Shown here: one piece after another, positions 5,427 to 10,178 of the stretch
Layout: each line of letters starts with the position of its first letter
Numbering within the stretch: the stretch's first letter is position 1
NCBI RefSeq assembly: GCF_019048065.1
Contig: NZ_CP077291.1
Span: forward strand, 2,976,001 to 3,040,000
Source of the DNA: Citrobacter farmeri
GTDB taxonomy: Bacteria; Pseudomonadota; Gammaproteobacteria; Enterobacterales; Enterobacteriaceae
Direction of reading: 5' to 3'
Length of the DNA: 64,000 bases
Position numbers and translations under genes: made by a program
The notes under the pieces: generated by a model
Told to the model about the DNA's origin: nothing
Database searches by the model: none
Seen by the model: the letters and a program-made list of their open reading frames with translations, nothing else

Positions 5427-6275
5427 TTACGACATAAAATATTCCGACAGCTTACTTGCCACACTCTCAATTGAGAAAATACTTTTCTGATGCGCTTTAC
5501 GGCACTCCGCGTAGCGCTCATCCTGCTCTTCCAGTGCCGTTAGCACCCGATCTGCCACCATCATCGCGCCAGCGATCTCAGCAAAGCCATATTCCCCTTC
5601 TCCCTTCAGCGCGACAGCTGCCTGTAAATTCCAGTCTGAAAGTCGGCTGAGCGGCGCAAACGTGCCTCGCGTCAGCGAAAGTATGCGCGTGCCCTGTTGC
5701 TTCGCGAGGGTGAGCGCCTGCATCATATCTGTGGAGGTCTGTTCGGTATGCACCACGATAATGCCTTGACTTTGCGCTTCAGCGTTCACTGAGGAGGTCG
5801 TGAGATAAAATCGATCGACAAAGCTCGCCGCTTTACCCATTTTTATCAGGTTCATCTGTAAAAAAAGCGCCACCGGTACAGCCGTTCCAACCGCGTAAAT
5901 CGCAACATTACTGACCTGATTTAACCAGGCTGCCGCGGCCTGCAATTCTTGCGAATTTATGATGGCATAGCTGTCACGGATACTCGCCACCACCGCTGAT
6001 ATTTCTTCATTGCCCTGCGCTTCAGGTCGTGCCGCACCTTGTTCCACGGCCAGTGCCGTTCTGAAATCGGAAAAACCTTTGAAACCAAACGCCCGGCAAA
6101 AACGCGTAATACTTCCTTCGCTGGTTTCGATTGAATCAGCCAACTCTGTAATGGTGTGCCGCATCACAAAGTCGGGATTCTCTGTCACGAAGCGACTCAC
6201 TTTTTCCAGGATCGGACTGAGACCGGAAGCTTCATTCCTGATATTTATCAGTAGGTTAGTATTAATCTGACTCAT
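5427..6275 (-). CDS. RpiR/MurR-family sugar-phosphate-responsive regulator
   Basis: The 282-residue product has the RpiR-family layout. Residues about 1-77 form the helix-turn-helix domain (TITELADSIETSEGSITRFCRAFGFKGFSDFR). Residues about 120-250 form a SIS sugar-phosphate-binding domain (AIYAVGTAVPVALFLQMNLIKMG and IIVVHTEQTSTDMMQAL). Members repress or activate adjacent sugar-catabolic genes in response to a phosphosugar. It is divergent from the PTS/transketolase genes across a 121-bp intergenic region and is very probably their regulator. I cannot assign a ligand or a symbol. The gene is not part of the E. coli K-12 arrangement here. Confidence 0.88.
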   Translation of the reverse strand: MSQINTNLLINIRNEASGLSPILEKVSRFVTENPDFVMRHTITELADSIETSEGSITRFCRAFGFKGFSDFRTALAVEQGAARPEAQGNEEISAVVASIRDSYAIINSQELQAAAAWLNQVSNVAIYAVGTAVPVALFLQMNLIKMGKAASFVDRFYLTTSSVNAEAQSQGIIVVHTEQTSTDMMQALTLAKQQGTRILSLTRGTFAPLSRLSDWNLQAAVALKGEGEYGFAEIAGAMMVADRVLTALEEQDERYAECRKAHQKSIFSIESVASKLSEYFMS

Positions 6276-6296
6276 TTTTAGCCTTTTTGCTCAAAA

Positions 6297-6312
6297 TGCA
6301 AACACAATCACA
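6297..6312. promoter_or_regulatory. Possible CRP half-site-type box in the PTS-operon promoter
   Basis: TGCAA-N6-TCACA resembles the CRP consensus TGTGA-N6-TCACA, with a perfect right half and 3 of 5 in the left half. It lies between the divergent regulator and the PTS operon, where catabolite control would be expected. The match is moderate. Confidence 0.3.
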
Positions 6313-6330
6313 TCTTTCTGCTCACGTAGA

Positions 6331-6377
6331 GATAATAATTTTTTTCACGTTACGCGCAACGGAAAATAATTATTTTT
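6331..6377. promoter_or_regulatory. Candidate operator for the RpiR-like regulator
   Basis: Two AT-rich arms face each other: GATAATAATTTTTTTC at 6331-6346 and GGAAAATAATTATTTTT at 6361-6377. The second arm contains the self-complementary AAAATAATTATTTT. The pair lies 19-66 bases before the IIB start codon, the usual place for an RpiR-family operator. The assignment is inferred. Confidence 0.4.
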
Positions 6378-6396
6378 ACACTTCAGGAGAAAGCAG

Positions 6397-6672
6397 ATGA
6401 AAGGTCTGATTGTCTGTCGTACCGGCATGGGCAGTTCCTTAATGCTCAAAATCAAAGCGCAAAAAATCATCGATAAGTATGGCTGGGATATCGAACTTGA
6501 ACACGATGTCTTGTCAGGGCTTGCTACCTGGCAAGGCATTGATTTTGTTCTTACCATGCGCGATCTCACCGATGAAATCGAGGCGGCTGGATTTCGGGCC
6601 ATCGGTATAACCGACTTGATGAATAGCGAAGAAATGGAAACCGCGCTCACCAGCGTAATTCAGGGCAACTAA
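6397..6672 (+). CDS. PTS system IIB component (UlaB/SgaB-like)
   Basis: This 91-residue cytoplasmic protein opens with KGLIVCRTGMGSSLMLK. That is the lactose/cellobiose-superfamily IIB loop with the phosphorylated cysteine, here Cys7. It would accept phosphate from the IIA encoded at 9744 and pass it to the sugar bound by the IIC encoded next. CAGGAGAAAG precedes the ATG. The IIC gene starts 17 bases after its stop. Small stand-alone IIB proteins of this kind accompany UlaA-type permeases. The substrate is unknown. Confidence 0.9.
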   Translation: MKGLIVCRTGMGSSLMLKIKAQKIIDKYGWDIELEHDVLSGLATWQGIDFVLTMRDLTDEIEAAGFRAIGITDLMNSEEMETALTSVIQGN

Positions 6673-6689
6673 CCTCTCCCGGAGGCAAC

Positions 6690-7955
6690 ATGGATCTCCT
6701 CAGGTTTATTGTATTCGACATTCTGGGTGTAACCCCACTTTTAGTTGGATTTATTGCACTCATTGGTTTGCTGATCCAACGTAAGCCAATTGAAAAAGTA
6801 CTATCCGGCACCTTCAAAACCATTGTCGGCTTCCTGGTCTTCGCGGGTGGCGCCGGACTGGCGGTCACCTCGTTGGGTAATTTTCAGACCTTATTCAGCG
6901 ATGGATTCGGACTAAAAGGTGTCATGCCTCTGGCGGAAGCATTAACGGGTCTGGCACAAACAAAGTTCGCCATGTGCGTTTCGTTGATCATGGTTATCGG
7001 CTTCGGCTGGAACCTGTTTTTTGCCCGGTTCACCCCTTTCAAGTACATCTTTTTGACCGGTCAACATAACCTGTATCTCTCCGCGCTGCTTACGGTAACG
7101 CTGAAAGCATTAGGTTACAGTGATGGCATTACGATTATCGTCGGTTCTGTGCTACTGGGGCTGGCCGCCTGTATCTATCCTGCCATCGCCCAACCGTGGA
7201 TGCGTAAGATTACCGGTAATGACGAAATTGCTATGGGCCATTACGTCACGCTGGCTTATGCCGCTTCTGGCTGGATCGGCTCGAAAGTGGGCGATCCCAA
7301 AGAATCGACGGAGAAACTTAACCTGCCGGGATGGCTGGGGATTTTTAAAGACTACATTGTCTCGGTTTCCATCTCAGTCAGTATTTTCTATTACATCGCA
7401 GCACTGGCAGCCGGGAAAACCGCAGTCACTGCAGTGGCTGGAGGAATGCACTGGCTGGTCTATCCCCTGTTTCAGTCACTGACCTTTACCGCTTCGCTTT
7501 ACATCATCATTACCGGGGTACGTTTGTTACTCTCAGAAATTGTTCCGGCCTTTCTTGGGATCTCGGAAAAATTTATCCCAAACGCTAAGCCGGCGCTCGA
7601 CTGTCCGGTCGTATTCCCCTATGCGCCAACCGCCACCGTACTCGGTTTTATTTCCTCATTTGTCGGCGGACTGGTGGTGATGGGCATACTCGCCCTGATT
7701 GGTCAGACGGTGATCATCCCGGTTGCCATCCCCTATTTCTTCATTGGGGCAACGGCCGCTGTATTCGGTAACGCATCAGGTGGCTGGAAAGGCGCGGTGG
7801 TAGGGAGTTTTATTACCGGCATTCTTATCGGAGTCGGTCCTGCGCTTATCTACCCCATTATGGAATCGGTCGGACTGTCCGGCACCAGCTTCCCGGAAAC
7901 TGACTTTGTTGTCCTCGGGCTCGCCGTGTATTACCTCGGCAAAATGCTGCCCTGA
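6690..7955 (+). CDS. PTS system IIC component, UlaA/SgaT family permease
   Basis: This 421-residue inner-membrane protein has about ten hydrophobic segments and the UlaA/SgaT signature features (FLVFAGGAGL, the FTPFKYIFLTGQHNLY stretch and the late PYFFIGATAAVFGNASGGWKGAV). In E. coli UlaA is the ascorbate permease of the PTS. This protein is shorter than UlaA (about 465) and its genomic partners differ, so ascorbate is not the likely substrate. It should bind and translocate a sugar while the IIB phosphorylates it. CCCGGAGGC precedes the ATG. Downstream are the two transketolase subunit genes. Confidence 0.9.
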   Translation: MDLLRFIVFDILGVTPLLVGFIALIGLLIQRKPIEKVLSGTFKTIVGFLVFAGGAGLAVTSLGNFQTLFSDGFGLKGVMPLAEALTGLAQTKFAMCVSLIMVIGFGWNLFFARFTPFKYIFLTGQHNLYLSALLTVTLKALGYSDGITIIVGSVLLGLAACIYPAIAQPWMRKITGNDEIAMGHYVTLAYAASGWIGSKVGDPKESTEKLNLPGWLGIFKDYIVSVSISVSIFYYIAALAAGKTAVTAVAGGMHWLVYPLFQSLTFTASLYIIITGVRLLLSEIVPAFLGISEKFIPNAKPALDCPVVFPYAPTATVLGFISSFVGGLVVMGILALIGQTVIIPVAIPYFFIGATAAVFGNASGGWKGAVVGSFITGILIGVGPALIYPIMESVGLSGTSFPETDFVVLGLAVYYLGKMLP

Positions 7956-7967
7956 TAAGGAGTAAAA

Positions 7968-8768
7968 ATGAATATTGATGAACTGAAATCGCATGCGCTG
8001 TCCGCTCGCCGCGATATTGTGAGCATGATATATGAATCCGGAATCGGCCATCCAGGTGGAGCGCTCTCCGTTGTCGATATCCTGACCTGGATTTACCACC
8101 AGGAAGTCGATCTGGACTCCACTCCACGCGCCAGAGTAGTCATGAGCAAAGGTCATGCTGTTGCTGCGCAATACGCGATGCTGTACCAGAAAGGGAAAAT
8201 AGACCGAAGTGAATTTAACACCTTTCGCCAGATTAATTCGCGCTTACAGGGGCACCCCAGCGTGAAATCGCTCCCGGAGGTTGATGCCACCACCGGGCTC
8301 CTGGGTCAGGGGCTCTCCGTCGCGCTGGGGATGGCGGCAGCAAAAAAGAAAGCTCAGGATCCGCACCGTGTCTTCGCCATAATTGGCGACGGCGAAATGC
8401 ATGAAGGTCAGATTTGGGAGTCATTGCAGCAGGCCAGCCACATGAAGATGGATAATCTGGTGGCCGTTATCGACTACAACGGCTTTTCCTCACACGATCC
8501 CGTCAACCAGGTCATCAATCTGGAACCCTTGGCCGATAAAATCCGCAGCTTCGGCTGGCATGTGCTTGAGATACAAAATGGCAACGATATGCACCAGGTT
8601 GCCGACACATTGATGCTTTCACGTCACCTCAAAGGCAAACCCGTGGCCATTGTTGCTCATACGGTCAAAGGCAGCGGCGTTAGCTATATGGAAAACAACG
8701 GTGACTGGCATTCAAAAACCCCAAGCGCAGAGCAATATCAGCAGGCAATGGAGGAGTTACAGTCATGA
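7968..8768 (+). CDS. Transketolase, N-terminal (thiamine-diphosphate) subunit
   Basis: This is the first half of a split transketolase, 266 residues. It carries the thiamine-diphosphate/Mg motif, with Gly140-Asp-Gly (IIGDGEMHEGQIWE) and Asn171 (VIDYNGFSS) about 30 residues later. The SGIGHPGGALSVVDIL and MSKGHAVAAQYA segments are also typical of transketolase. It needs the partner at 8765 to form an active site. The two genes overlap by an ATGA, which suggests translational coupling. Genes for the PTS IIB and IIC lie just upstream. Single-chain tktA and tktB supply housekeeping transketolase elsewhere in enterics, so this pair is probably a specialised catabolic enzyme. Confidence 0.93.
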   Translation: MNIDELKSHALSARRDIVSMIYESGIGHPGGALSVVDILTWIYHQEVDLDSTPRARVVMSKGHAVAAQYAMLYQKGKIDRSEFNTFRQINSRLQGHPSVKSLPEVDATTGLLGQGLSVALGMAAAKKKAQDPHRVFAIIGDGEMHEGQIWESLQQASHMKMDNLVAVIDYNGFSSHDPVNQVINLEPLADKIRSFGWHVLEIQNGNDMHQVADTLMLSRHLKGKPVAIVAHTVKGSGVSYMENNGDWHSKTPSAEQYQQAMEELQS

Positions 8769-9682
8769 GAGCACCACGTGATGAGATTGGCAATGCCCTG
8801 CTCGCCCTGAAAGAGAAAGGCTATCCGGTTGTCGTTATCGATAGCGATCTGGCAAGTTCGACTCGTACCGATCAATTTCAAAAATCCTGGCCCGATGCCT
8901 TCTTTGAAATGGGGATTGCTGAAGGTTCCGCCATGAGTTTCACCACGGGGCAAGCGCTGGAAGGGAACATCCCGTTCTATGTTAACTTCGCAATGTTTGT
9001 TACTGGCACGGCCTGGACCCAGTTGCGTCAGGCCTGCTATGCAAAAGCGAATATCAAGTTGGTGGGCAGTCATCCTGGTATGGATGATGGGCCGGACGGC
9101 GCATCCCATCACGCGCTGGAAGATCTGGCCTTAACGCGGGTTTTACCTGGGATCACGATTCTGACACCGGCCGACGCGGAGGAAATTGAAGCGGCTTTTG
9201 AACAGGCAGTCAATATTCACGGCCCGGTTTATATTCGTGTGGCACGGGAACCGATGCCTGTACGGGATAAATCCGCCGTTCCGCGCGTGACGGATATTGC
9301 CGCGGTAGAAGACGCTGGTGATGACTTTGCTATCCTCTATGAGGGAACGGTACTGGAACAAGCCAGTGCGGGATATGAACAGCTTTATTCAGCAGGTAAA
9401 CGAGGCAAACTTATTCATGTCGCCACGCTAAAACCGTTTAACCGCCAGCGCTTTCTGCAATTGATTTCGGGTTGTCCGCAGATCGTAACGATTGAAAATC
9501 ACACCATCACCGGTGGACTGGGTGGACAAGTCGCCGAAGTACTGGCAGAGGAAGGATTAGGGATAAGGCTGTCGCGACTTGGGACACAGGATACGTTTAC
9601 CGAATCAGGAAACAGTCGTCAGTTAAAAGAGAAATATGGCATTTCAGCGTCTGGCGTCTGTAAGGCGCTGAGTAAAGACTAA
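8765..9682 (+). CDS. Transketolase, C-terminal (pyrimidine-binding) subunit
   Basis: This is the second half of the split transketolase, 305 residues. The pyrimidine-binding domain includes FFEMGIAEGSAMSF, where Glu53 is the expected cofactor-activating glutamate. It is followed by the substrate-channel stretch SHPGMDDGPDGASHHALEDLAL. A transketolase C-terminal domain occupies about 190-300 (IVTIENHTITGGLGGQVAEVL). The ATG overlaps the TGA of the preceding gene. With its partner it would transfer a two-carbon ketol unit from a ketose phosphate to an aldose phosphate. The donor is probably the sugar phosphate made by the neighbouring PTS, which is an inference from context. Confidence 0.93.
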   Translation: MRAPRDEIGNALLALKEKGYPVVVIDSDLASSTRTDQFQKSWPDAFFEMGIAEGSAMSFTTGQALEGNIPFYVNFAMFVTGTAWTQLRQACYAKANIKLVGSHPGMDDGPDGASHHALEDLALTRVLPGITILTPADAEEIEAAFEQAVNIHGPVYIRVAREPMPVRDKSAVPRVTDIAAVEDAGDDFAILYEGTVLEQASAGYEQLYSAGKRGKLIHVATLKPFNRQRFLQLISGCPQIVTIENHTITGGLGGQVAEVLAEEGLGIRLSRLGTQDTFTESGNSRQLKEKYGISASGVCKALSKD

Positions 9683-9688
9683 TGAGGT

Positions 9689-9720
9689 ACCGGATGGCGA
9701 TTCCCGGAACGCCATCCGGT
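9689..9720. repeat. REP-like palindrome between transketolase and IIA genes
   Basis: ACCGGATGGCG and CGCCATCCGGT are perfect 11-base complementary arms around a 10-base spacer, the sequence style of enterobacterial REP elements. It sits inside the presumed operon, starting 6 bases after the transketolase stop, and could lower expression of the distal IIA gene. Confidence 0.75.
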
Positions 9721-9743
9721 AAAACAGACTACAAGGAACAACA

Positions 9744-10178
9744 ATGGCGCTCCCCCTCTTTTCCGCCTGCCAGTTTCGAGAACAATGCCATTCCTGGCAA
9801 GACGCGGTAAAAACGGCCTGTTTGCCGCTGGAAGAACAGAAAATAATTACTACTGAGTACGCACGGGCAATTATCTATGCCACAGAACAAACCGGCCCCT
9901 GGTATATTTTAAGTCCTGAGTTTGCCCTGCCGCACGCTCGTCCTGAAGAGGGCGTTCTCAGCAGCAAGTCGCATTTGTCGCTCTTGTGTCTGAAAGAGCC
10001 AGTCGCCTTTCCCGGTCACCCGGACGTGCGGCTGGTCATTGTTCTTGCCGCCGCCAGCAGCACTCAGCATATAGAAATGATTCAACAGTTGGTGTGCTGG
10101 CTCGATGACGCAGACCATTTACAAAAACTGAGCGATATCACCACCCCGGCGCAACTACGCTCCTGGCTTGATGCCTGA
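9744..10178 (+). CDS. PTS system IIA component, fructose/mannitol type
   Basis: This 144-residue cytoplasmic phosphocarrier has the EIIA type-2 motif FALPHARPEEGV, in which His64 is the residue expected to take phosphate from HPr. The second half (VKLVIVLAAASSTQHIEMIQQL-like, here VRLVIVLAAASSTQHIEMIQQL) is also typical. AAGGAACAACA precedes the ATG. It completes the IIA-IIB-IIC set, although it sits at the far end of the operon behind a REP-like hairpin, 61 bases after the transketolase stop. The substrate is unknown. Confidence 0.9.
   Translation: MALPLFSACQFREQCHSWQDAVKTACLPLEEQKIITTEYARAIIYATEQTGPWYILSPEFALPHARPEEGVLSSKSHLSLLCLKEPVAFPGHPDVRLVIVLAAASSTQHIEMIQQLVCWLDDADHLQKLSDITTPAQLRSWLDA

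What the first reader, a model, noticed from the sequence alone, without database searches (positions are those of the whole stretch)
5427..10178. Import-and-cleave operon: PTS plus split transketolase under an RpiR-type regulator
The sequence shows genes for IIB, IIC (UlaA type), transketolase N and C subunits and IIA, divergent from an RpiR/SIS regulator. There is no kinase, isomerase or aldolase gene. Established knowledge: a PTS yields a phosphosugar, and transketolase moves a two-carbon unit from a ketose phosphate. Inference: the PTS makes a ketose phosphate that the split transketolase cleaves directly into the pentose phosphate pool, so the whole pathway would fit in five genes. The substrate is unknown. 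Split transketolases acting on unusual ketose phosphates (such as apulose 4-phosphate) are a precedent. I recall similarly built clusters in Salmonella but cannot verify the match here.
Basis: partly seen in the sequence, partly recalled or inferred. Interest (0 to 1): 0.72.

Follow-up and report, generated by a model that had tools for sequence, protein, structure and literature searches.

The report
Sugar-import and transketolase operon
A compact set of six bacterial genes appears to import a ketose sugar, phosphorylate it and feed it straight to its own transketolase; a gene set of the same layout was already described in streptococci, with a similar prediction that was never confirmed, so this is a useful but not new kind of system.

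Summary
A divergent RpiR/SIS regulator faces IIB, IIC (UlaA family), TKN, TKC and IIA, with all catalytic residues present and no kinase, isomerase or aldolase gene. It is a conserved module: all six genes sit at the same pflA/ycaD site in 16 of 31 fetched loci, and 7 of 7 Enterobacteriaceae IIC hits have RpiR, IIB, TKN and TKC beside them. IIB-IIC-TKN-TKC also recurs in spirochaetes, once with its own EI and HPr and no other enzyme. Best reading: the PTS makes a normal ketose phosphate, most likely D-xylulose 5-phosphate, which the transketolase uses directly. The transketolase keeps the phosphate ligands; most ascorbate ligands of UlaA are replaced by another conserved set; and the nearest transketolases outside the enterics, in Gilliamella, sit behind a mannitol-type PTS and a dehydrogenase, the layout of a polyol-phosphate route. 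The idea is not new: Bidossi 2012 predicted ketopentose transport for the pneumococcal operon of this layout (SP2127-2131) but could not test it, and Afzal 2015 found two- to threefold induction by ascorbate ('ula2'). The substrate is unproven.

The parts
5427..6275 (-). RpiR/SIS-type transcription regulator, divergent from the operon
   Evidence: PF01418 HTH_6 and PF01380 SIS; 78-92% identical in 5 and 59% in 1 of the 6 other IIC-bearing Enterobacteriaceae genomes
6297..6312 (.). CRP-like site (TGCAA-N6-TCACA) in the divergent promoter region; inferred
   Evidence: TCACA invariant in 12 of 12 and TGCAA in 11 of 12 aligned intergenic regions (window plus 11 chosen loci); identification as CRP is by resemblance only
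6331..6347 (.). second, imperfect AT-rich operator-like element, about 33 bp upstream of the palindrome; inferred
   Evidence: ATAAT-N-ATT invariant in 12 of 12
6364..6375 (.). perfect palindrome AAATAATTATTT, likely regulator operator; inferred
   Evidence: all 12 bases invariant in 12 of 12; single exact match in 64 kb, 0 of 100 shuffles had one
6397..6672 (+). PTS enzyme IIB, P-loop Cys-7 (CRTGMGSS)
   Evidence: PF02302; motif read from sequence
6690..7955 (+). PTS enzyme IIC, UlaA family (EIIC-GAT), distinct 421-424 aa subfamily
   Evidence: PF03611 402.7 bits; 29% identical to the genome's own UlaA, 64-80% to the 7 Vibrio, Streptococcus suis, Sneathia, Oceanotoga and spirochaete members aligned
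7968..8768 (+). Transketolase N-terminal subunit (ThDP domain)
   Evidence: PF00456; nearest solved relative 6yak split-TK N chain, E 1.7e-68
8765..9682 (+). Transketolase C-terminal subunit (pyrimidine + C domains)
   Evidence: PF02779/PF02780; nearest solved relative 6yaj, E 5.5e-62; phosphate ligands aligned to human TK
9744..10178 (+). PTS enzyme IIA, mannitol/fructose type (PTS_EIIA_2), His in ALPHARPEE; the least conserved subunit (56-75% at the shared site)
   Evidence: PF00359; motif read from sequence; identities

Best explanation
It is an import-and-cleave catabolic operon. EI/HPr phosphorylate IIA, then IIB; the IIC imports a free ketose and releases it as a ketose phosphate; the two-chain transketolase takes carbons 1-2 from it and passes them to an aldose phosphate of the pentose phosphate pool, so no dedicated kinase, isomerase or aldolase is needed. 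The most likely substrate is D-xylulose (product D-xylulose 5-phosphate). The RpiR protein probably binds the AAATAATTATTT palindrome, senses the sugar phosphate and controls the operon together with cAMP-CRP. Shown: gene content, conservation, intact catalytic and phosphate-binding residues, change of most ascorbate ligands, conserved promoter elements. Inferred: substrate, regulator ligand and sign, flux direction.
For: Module integrity: 7 of 7 IIC hits among 295 Enterobacteriaceae genomes carry RpiR-IIB-IIC-TKN-TKC. 5 of 5 spirochaete IIC hits (of 198 genomes) have IIB-IIC-TKN-TKC, though 3 of the 5 had first come in through TKN (G896 judged so by its contig length) and in one of these the IIC frame is broken; one (L098) is regulator-IIA-HPr-EI-IIB-IIC-TKN-TKC with no further enzyme. 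TK donor site: human R318, S345, H416, D424 and R474 align to R5, S32, H103, D111 and R161 of TKC (ligand roles recalled); H26, H66, H100, H261, E411, H473 in TktA numbering are kept. Gilliamella: related TK pair behind mannitol-type IICB + zinc-type medium-chain dehydrogenase, followed by IIA, in 5 of 5 loci, all of one genus, the layout of a polyol-phosphate to ketose-phosphate route such as PTS + arabitol-phosphate dehydrogenase to xylulose 5-P (PMC6685057, abstract and passages). IIC is kept at 93-98% where TKN is at 81-89%, and the 8 members aligned (window included) share one pocket signature that differs from UlaA, so one conserved substrate is likely. In the same genome two other UlaA-type PTS pair with PFK or PfkB + class II aldolase (L049, L050); here TK takes that place.
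Against: No substrate has been tested. Pneumococci, which carry the operon of the same layout, gave only unspecific acidification on xylulose, ribose, xylose and arabinose (PMC3302838), and the only inducer reported there is ascorbate (2-3 fold; PMC4324149; xylulose was not in that panel). D-xylulose 5-P could be used by TktA/TktB, so a dedicated TK is not strictly needed. The Gilliamella dehydrogenase's substrate is unknown (its best NCBIfam models are threonine-dehydrogenase-like and below cut-off), and its PTS is mannitol-like, which would equally fit fructose 6-P. One NCBIfam ascorbate-IIC model is passed.
Confidence: 0.55

Rival explanations
1. It is a second L-ascorbate (or ascorbate-breakdown product) system, as proposed for the streptococcal ula2 operon; the TK only helps downstream of the ascorbate pathway.
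For: Ascorbate induced pneumococcal ula2 2-3 fold and UlaR2 is needed (PMC4324149); the IIC belongs to the UlaA family and passes one NCBIfam ascorbate-IIC cut-off; part of the UlaA ligands (H194, D314, R288, F362) is kept.
Against: Other ligands named for ascorbate in UlaA (PMC6048161) are changed: H135 to Q, I136 to H, Q195 to Y and M410 to F in 8 of 8 subfamily members aligned, Q139 to Y in 7 and F in 1; only 29% identity to the genome's own UlaA. The same genome has a ula locus elsewhere (L048: UlaA by sequence, a UlaE-type AP_endonuc_2 protein by Pfam, IIB and IIA between by resemblance). No further gene lies inside the window operon or the spirochaete gene runs.
Confidence: 0.12
2. The imported ketose is a ketohexose or ketoheptose (for example fructose or sedoheptulose), whose 6- or 7-phosphate is also a normal TK donor.
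For: The donor site is generic for phosphorylated ketoses; Gilliamella's PTS is mannitol-type, and mannitol or sorbitol phosphate would give fructose 6-P.
Against: Fructose has its own PTS in these bacteria (recalled); free sedoheptulose is rare outside some plants (recalled). Nothing found here separates pentulose from hexulose.
Confidence: 0.18
3. The PTS product is an unusual (branched or rare) ketose phosphate such as apulose 4-phosphate, and the TK is specialised for it.
For: A dedicated TK beside TktA/TktB suggests a special substrate; apulose-4-phosphate TK is a recalled precedent of a split TK.
Against: The phosphate and hydroxyl ligands checked are all canonical, unlike the genome's other two split TKs: L045 (His461 to Asp, Asp469 to Asn) and L046 (His461 to Asn, Asp469 to Leu, Arg520 to Gly). 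No apulose-TK sequence was compared.
Confidence: 0.07
4. The TK is only a pentose-phosphate helper; the PTS product is metabolised by enzymes encoded elsewhere.
For: Pneumococcal PTS operons carry extra PPP genes (ula operon tkt; SP1615-1616; PMC3302838).
Against: TK is the only enzyme kept with this PTS, including in the otherwise self-contained L098 operon.
Confidence: 0.1

Closest known systems
Streptococcal SP2127-SP2131 / ula2 operon (Bidossi 2012 PMC3302838; Afzal 2015 PMC4324149; passages of both)
   Same: IIB-IIC-TktN-TktC order; a Streptococcus suis IIC is 68% identical to the window IIC with the same pocket signature, and S. suis is said to carry a ula2 operon; same functional guess (ketopentose import) in print
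   Different: multidomain PRD-type regulator that carries an EIIA domain there, RpiR/SIS regulator and free IIA here; the SP2127-SP2131 sequences themselves were not compared
Second cluster in the same genome (L045), taken from memory to be the Salmonella STM2340-2344 type (TktC; Shaw 2018, seen here only as a citation in PMC12651746)
   Same: UlaA-type PTS plus split TK
   Different: order IIA-IIB-IIC-TKN-TKC, LacI-like regulator; IIC 46% and TKN 37% identical; TK donor-site His and Asp replaced
L-ascorbate PTS UlaABC (TC 4.A.7)
   Same: IIC family
   Different: 29% identity, most ascorbate ligands replaced, no ula enzymes beside it
PTS + polyol-phosphate dehydrogenase routes (D-arabitol in Bacillus methanolicus, PMC6685057, abstract and passages)
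   Same: PTS delivers a pentose-phosphate-level ketose; the Gilliamella variant has a dehydrogenase
   Different: the window has no dehydrogenase and a different IIC
Split transketolase of Carboxydothermus hydrogenoformans (PDB 6yaj/6yak)
   Same: two-chain TK, nearest solved structure
   Different: gene context not examined

Membership tests
ula2/SP2127-2131-type PTS-transketolase operon | contiguous IIB-IIC-TKN-TKC | tested here: met
ula2/SP2127-2131-type PTS-transketolase operon | IIC of the same subfamily as the streptococcal one | tested here: met
   68% to a Streptococcus suis IIC, same pocket signature; SP2129 itself not compared
ula2/SP2127-2131-type PTS-transketolase operon | PRD-type regulator UlaR2 carrying EIIA | tested here: not met
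   RpiR/SIS regulator instead, with a separate IIA
ula2/SP2127-2131-type PTS-transketolase operon | induction by ascorbate | not testable with these tools
   needs expression data
L-ascorbate PTS (UlaABC) | ascorbate-binding residues of UlaA | tested here: not met
   H194, D314, R288, I358, F362 kept; H135, I136, Q139, Q195, M410 changed (M410 is outside the alignment); HP1 positions 86-87 align differently and are not counted
L-ascorbate PTS (UlaABC) | linked ascorbate-6-P catabolic genes | tested here: not met
   none between pflA and ycaD; a ula locus is elsewhere (L048)
Transketolase (split, two-chain) | ThDP and catalytic residues | tested here: met
   H26, H66, H100, D155, N185, H261, E411, H473 of TktA numbering (roles recalled)
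Transketolase (split, two-chain) | donor phosphate ligands | tested here: met
   human R318, S345, H416, R474 (and D424) equivalents in the HMMER alignment; the MAFFT alignments did not resolve R358/S385
Transketolase (split, two-chain) | enzyme activity | not testable with these tools
   needs purified subunits
Salmonella TktC cluster | orthologous TK and site | tested here: inconclusive
   L045, not the window, fits that cluster from memory, and the window TKN is in a separate clade from L045; no Salmonella sequence was compared
Apulose-4-phosphate transketolase | sequence clade of AptA/AptB | not tested
   no reference sequence compared; no paper with both terms held
Apulose-4-phosphate transketolase | linked apiose isomerase / apulose kinase (as recalled) | tested here: not met
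   no such gene between pflA and ycaD
Polyol PTS pathway | polyol-phosphate dehydrogenase in the operon | tested here: not met
   absent in the window; a medium-chain dehydrogenase of unknown substrate in 5 of 5 Gilliamella loci

The most novel reading that the evidence does not exclude
A widespread PTS subfamily (421-424 aa IIC with the FLTGQHNL(Y/F)L and GHY signatures) coupled to one two-chain transketolase is a one-enzyme catabolic route for a free ketose that has no recognised PTS (D-xylulose, or sedoheptulose or erythrulose released by other microbes or by ascorbate breakdown). The transketolase would be interchangeable between ketose-specific and polyol-specific PTS, as in Gilliamella, and shared by two PTS in Brachyspira.
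Probability: 0.35. Interest if true: 0.6.

Novelty: new member of a known kind. Interest (0 to 1): 0.4.

Why it matters
If true, transketolase is the first dedicated step of a sugar-import pathway, with no kinase, isomerase or aldolase. It would suggest a substrate for the unassigned streptococcal ula2 PTS and its relatives in enterics and spirochaetes that can be tested in a harmless host, and it would correct the 'ascorbate PTS' label that sources give to members of this IIC subfamily (names). It matters mainly for annotation and for understanding which rare sugars gut bacteria exchange.

Tried and rejected
Ascorbate as the substrate: weakened by the pocket comparison and by the separate ula locus (L048). 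Horizontal island: rejected for the enterobacterial copies at the shared site, which have ordinary G+C (47-54% in the window's six genes against 53.7% for the window); two Enterobacterales MAGs have the set elsewhere (L029, L030). The extra ~1.6 kb between IIA and ycaD in L023-L026 is an amino-acid permease gene, not a pathway gene (Pfam on L023 only). Lachnospiraceae relatives (L037, L040) sit beside cytidylyltransferase, HMGL-like, MptE-like and methyltransferase genes, a different use of a related TK; L044 has ORFs of similar sizes but was not scanned. E. coli: no match in 20,395 records by megablast. Paper searches for STM2340/STM2341, for apulose + transketolase and for 'split transketolase' + Salmonella found nothing held; further searches brought up the two pneumococcal papers but, from their listings, no test of the substrate; only open-licence PMC papers are searched, so one may exist elsewhere. 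PMC3875467 (passages) was not relevant. Shaw 2018 is not held. The first TKN tree contained 8 wrong-strand rows and was discarded; one search replaces it. MAFFT failed to place R358/S385 at the subunit junction, so the HMMER alignment to human TK is used. A plasmid search to name the organism gave no long match.
Full report
OBSERVATION. The five operon genes and the divergent regulator are present at the stated coordinates with the stated families. The order is RpiR (-), then IIB, IIC, TKN, TKC, IIA (+). TKN and TKC overlap by 4 bp. IIB has its P-loop cysteine and IIA its ALPHA histidine (read). pflB-pflA lie upstream and ycaD, ycaC and dmsCBA downstream (ycaD and ycaC by NCBIfam; pfl and dms names by my reading of the ORFs), so the site is an ordinary enterobacterial chromosome.

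CONSERVATION. A scan of named genomes with the TKN protein gave 31 loci. In 16 of them (Raoultella, Klebsiella, Kluyvera, Citrobacter, Enterobacter, Entomohabitans) all six genes lie in order between pflA and ycaD; in one of the 16 (L025) the RpiR, IIC and ycaD frames are broken. In two Enterobacterales MAGs the six genes sit elsewhere (L029, L030). The other 13 loci are 5 Gilliamella, 3 spirochaetes, 3 Lachnospiraceae and 2 other Clostridia. E. coli has no match in 20,395 records by megablast. Among 59 near relatives TKN is kept at 84% identity or more in 5, own genome included. A search with IIC alone found 7 of 295 family genomes (own included), and all 7 carry RpiR, IIB, TKN and the start of TKC beside it. 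In the six others IIC is 93-98% identical to the window's and TKN 81-89%. TKN at E<=1e-70 was found in 1 of 369 genomes drawn over the class (the window's own), and IIC at E<=1e-140 in 0 of 299 genomes of the phylum of the Roseburia-like MAG G425 (the tool warns that an empty answer without a positive control shows nothing).

DISTANT RELATIVES. IIC was found in 5 of 198 genomes of the Brachyspira phylum, all with IIB-IIC-TKN-TKC; in one (L100/L039) the IIC reads as two ORFs. One operon (L098) is regulator-IIA-HPr-EI-IIB-IIC-TKN-TKC, with IIA, HPr and EI verified by Pfam and the rest by BLAST to the window's proteins, and no further enzyme. In the three Brachyspira-type loci (L042, L099, L100) the TK pair is followed by IIA-IIB-IIC of the L045 class (IIC 57-58% identical to L045), so two PTS of different classes flank one TK.

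GILLIAMELLA. In 5 of 5 Gilliamella loci the closest relatives outside the enterics (TKN 69%, TKC 61-63%) lie behind a mannitol-type IICB (PF02378 + PF02302) and a zinc-type medium-chain dehydrogenase (PF08240) and are followed by a IIA; a GntR-type regulator is divergent in 4 of the 5, and the fifth contig (L033) starts too near to show one (Pfam run on L031, the others by BLAST to L031). These are five genomes of one genus, so one evolutionary event. The tree groups the Gilliamella TKNs with the enterobacterial ones and a long-branched Vibrio protein (support 86/94, below the 95 mark). A polyol PTS followed by a dehydrogenase makes a ketose phosphate; the published D-arabitol route ends in xylulose 5-phosphate (PMC6685057, abstract and passages). 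This is the strongest hint on the substrate class, but the dehydrogenase's substrate is unknown.

TRANSKETOLASE SITE. The HMMER alignment to human TK (4kxu) puts R318, S345, H416, D424 and R474 opposite R5, S32, H103, D111 and R161 in TKC. The ThDP and catalytic residues (H26, H66, H100, D155, N185, H261, E411, H473 in TktA numbering) are kept. The ligand roles are recalled. The genome's other two split TKs differ: L045 has Asp for His461 and Asn for Asp469; L046 has Asn, Leu and Gly for His461, Asp469 and Arg520. The window's TK is therefore the ordinary one of the three.

IIC POCKET. Ascorbate ligands of UlaA were taken from PMC6048161 (passages). In the window IIC, H194, D314, R288, I358 and F362 are kept, while H135, I136, Q139, Q195 and M410 become Q, H, Y, Y and F. 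The same set is found in the 8 subfamily members aligned (window, three spirochaetes and four proteins picked from the 120 listed: Streptococcus suis, Vibrio, Sneathia, Oceanotoga), with F for Y at 139 in one (L098) and V for I at 358 in three. Positions 86-87 align differently and are left out. A conserved substrate other than ascorbate is the simplest reading. The genome has a ula locus (L048: UlaA by sequence, UlaE-type protein by Pfam, IIB and IIA by resemblance) and two further UlaA-type PTS with PfkB or PFK plus class II aldolase (L049, L050).

REGULATION. Twelve intergenic regions aligned (window and 11 of the 16 same-site loci) share a perfect palindrome AAATAATTATTT (window 6364-6375; one match in 64 kb, none in 100 shuffles), an imperfect copy about 33 bp upstream, and a CRP-like TGCAA-N6-TCACA (TGCAA in 11 of 12, TCACA in 12 of 12). 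These are inferred sites; the promoter scan found no more promoter-like sites than shuffles do (6 against 5.0).

LITERATURE. [quoted passage not shown] Afzal 2015 (PMC4324149, passages) names it ula2, shows induction by ascorbate (2.3-3.2 fold in the array) through UlaR2 and reports no activation by the other 15 carbon sources tested; xylulose was not in the panel. Salmonella RNA-seq shows a putative transketolase (STM14_2886, 3.53) and ulaA_2 (3.48) up in biofilm at 40 against 5 mM L-arabinose (PMC8341724, passages). I take these from memory to be the L045-type cluster.

VERDICT. Import-and-cleave is the best reading (about 0.55 with D-xylulose as the lead substrate; about 0.75 for some ketose phosphate used directly by this TK). 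It is a new member of a known kind whose substrate I found no test of (open-licence papers only). What this work adds: the ascorbate label is unlikely, the TK donor site is canonical, the module is self-contained in one spirochaete, and a polyol-type variant exists in Gilliamella.

Noticed in passing
L046:7380-9138 and L083 (G000:C1:3320000-3346000): A third split transketolase in the same genome beside what read as entD/fepA, with a DeoR/SorC-type regulator, a glycerol-kinase-like FGGY kinase, a ribose-type ABC transporter and two short-chain-dehydrogenase-like genes; its TK has other residues at the usual donor-site His, Asp and Arg, which suggests a non-phosphorylated or odd ketose.
   Followed up: partly
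L045:2114-7415 (G000:C1:1444000-1456000): Paralogous UlaA-type PTS + split TK cluster with a LacI-like regulator next to what read as pta/yfcC; TK donor-site His461 to Asp and Asp469 to Asn, so a different ketose is likely.
   Followed up: partly
L099:5454-10955, L100, L042 (Brachyspira-type loci): One split TK flanked by two UlaA-type PTS of different classes (window-type IIC and L045-type IIC) in one run of genes.
   Followed up: partly
L102:4979-8449 (Gilliamella, G430): L045-type LacI regulator, IIA and IIC (77% identical) with no transketolase genes beside them.
   Followed up: no
L037, L040 (Lachnospiraceae; perhaps L044, not scanned): A related split TK sits among cytidylyltransferase, HMGL-like, MptE-like and methyltransferase genes: a possible role in making an activated sugar or cell-surface monosaccharide.
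   Followed up: no
L049:5113-9183 and L050:5057-9423: Two more UlaA-type PTS in the same genome pair with PfkB or PFK kinase plus class II aldolase, the conventional alternative to the transketolase route.
   Followed up: partly
L025 (Kluyvera genomosp. 3 YDC799): RpiR, IIC and ycaD read in several pieces in this copy, and dmsC/dmsA too; broken frames in several neighbouring genes look more like sequencing errors than decay.
   Followed up: no
P0029 (387 aa): A metagenomic protein carries both EIIC-GAT and transketolase N domains; either a real IIC-TKN fusion or a frameshift artefact.
   Followed up: no
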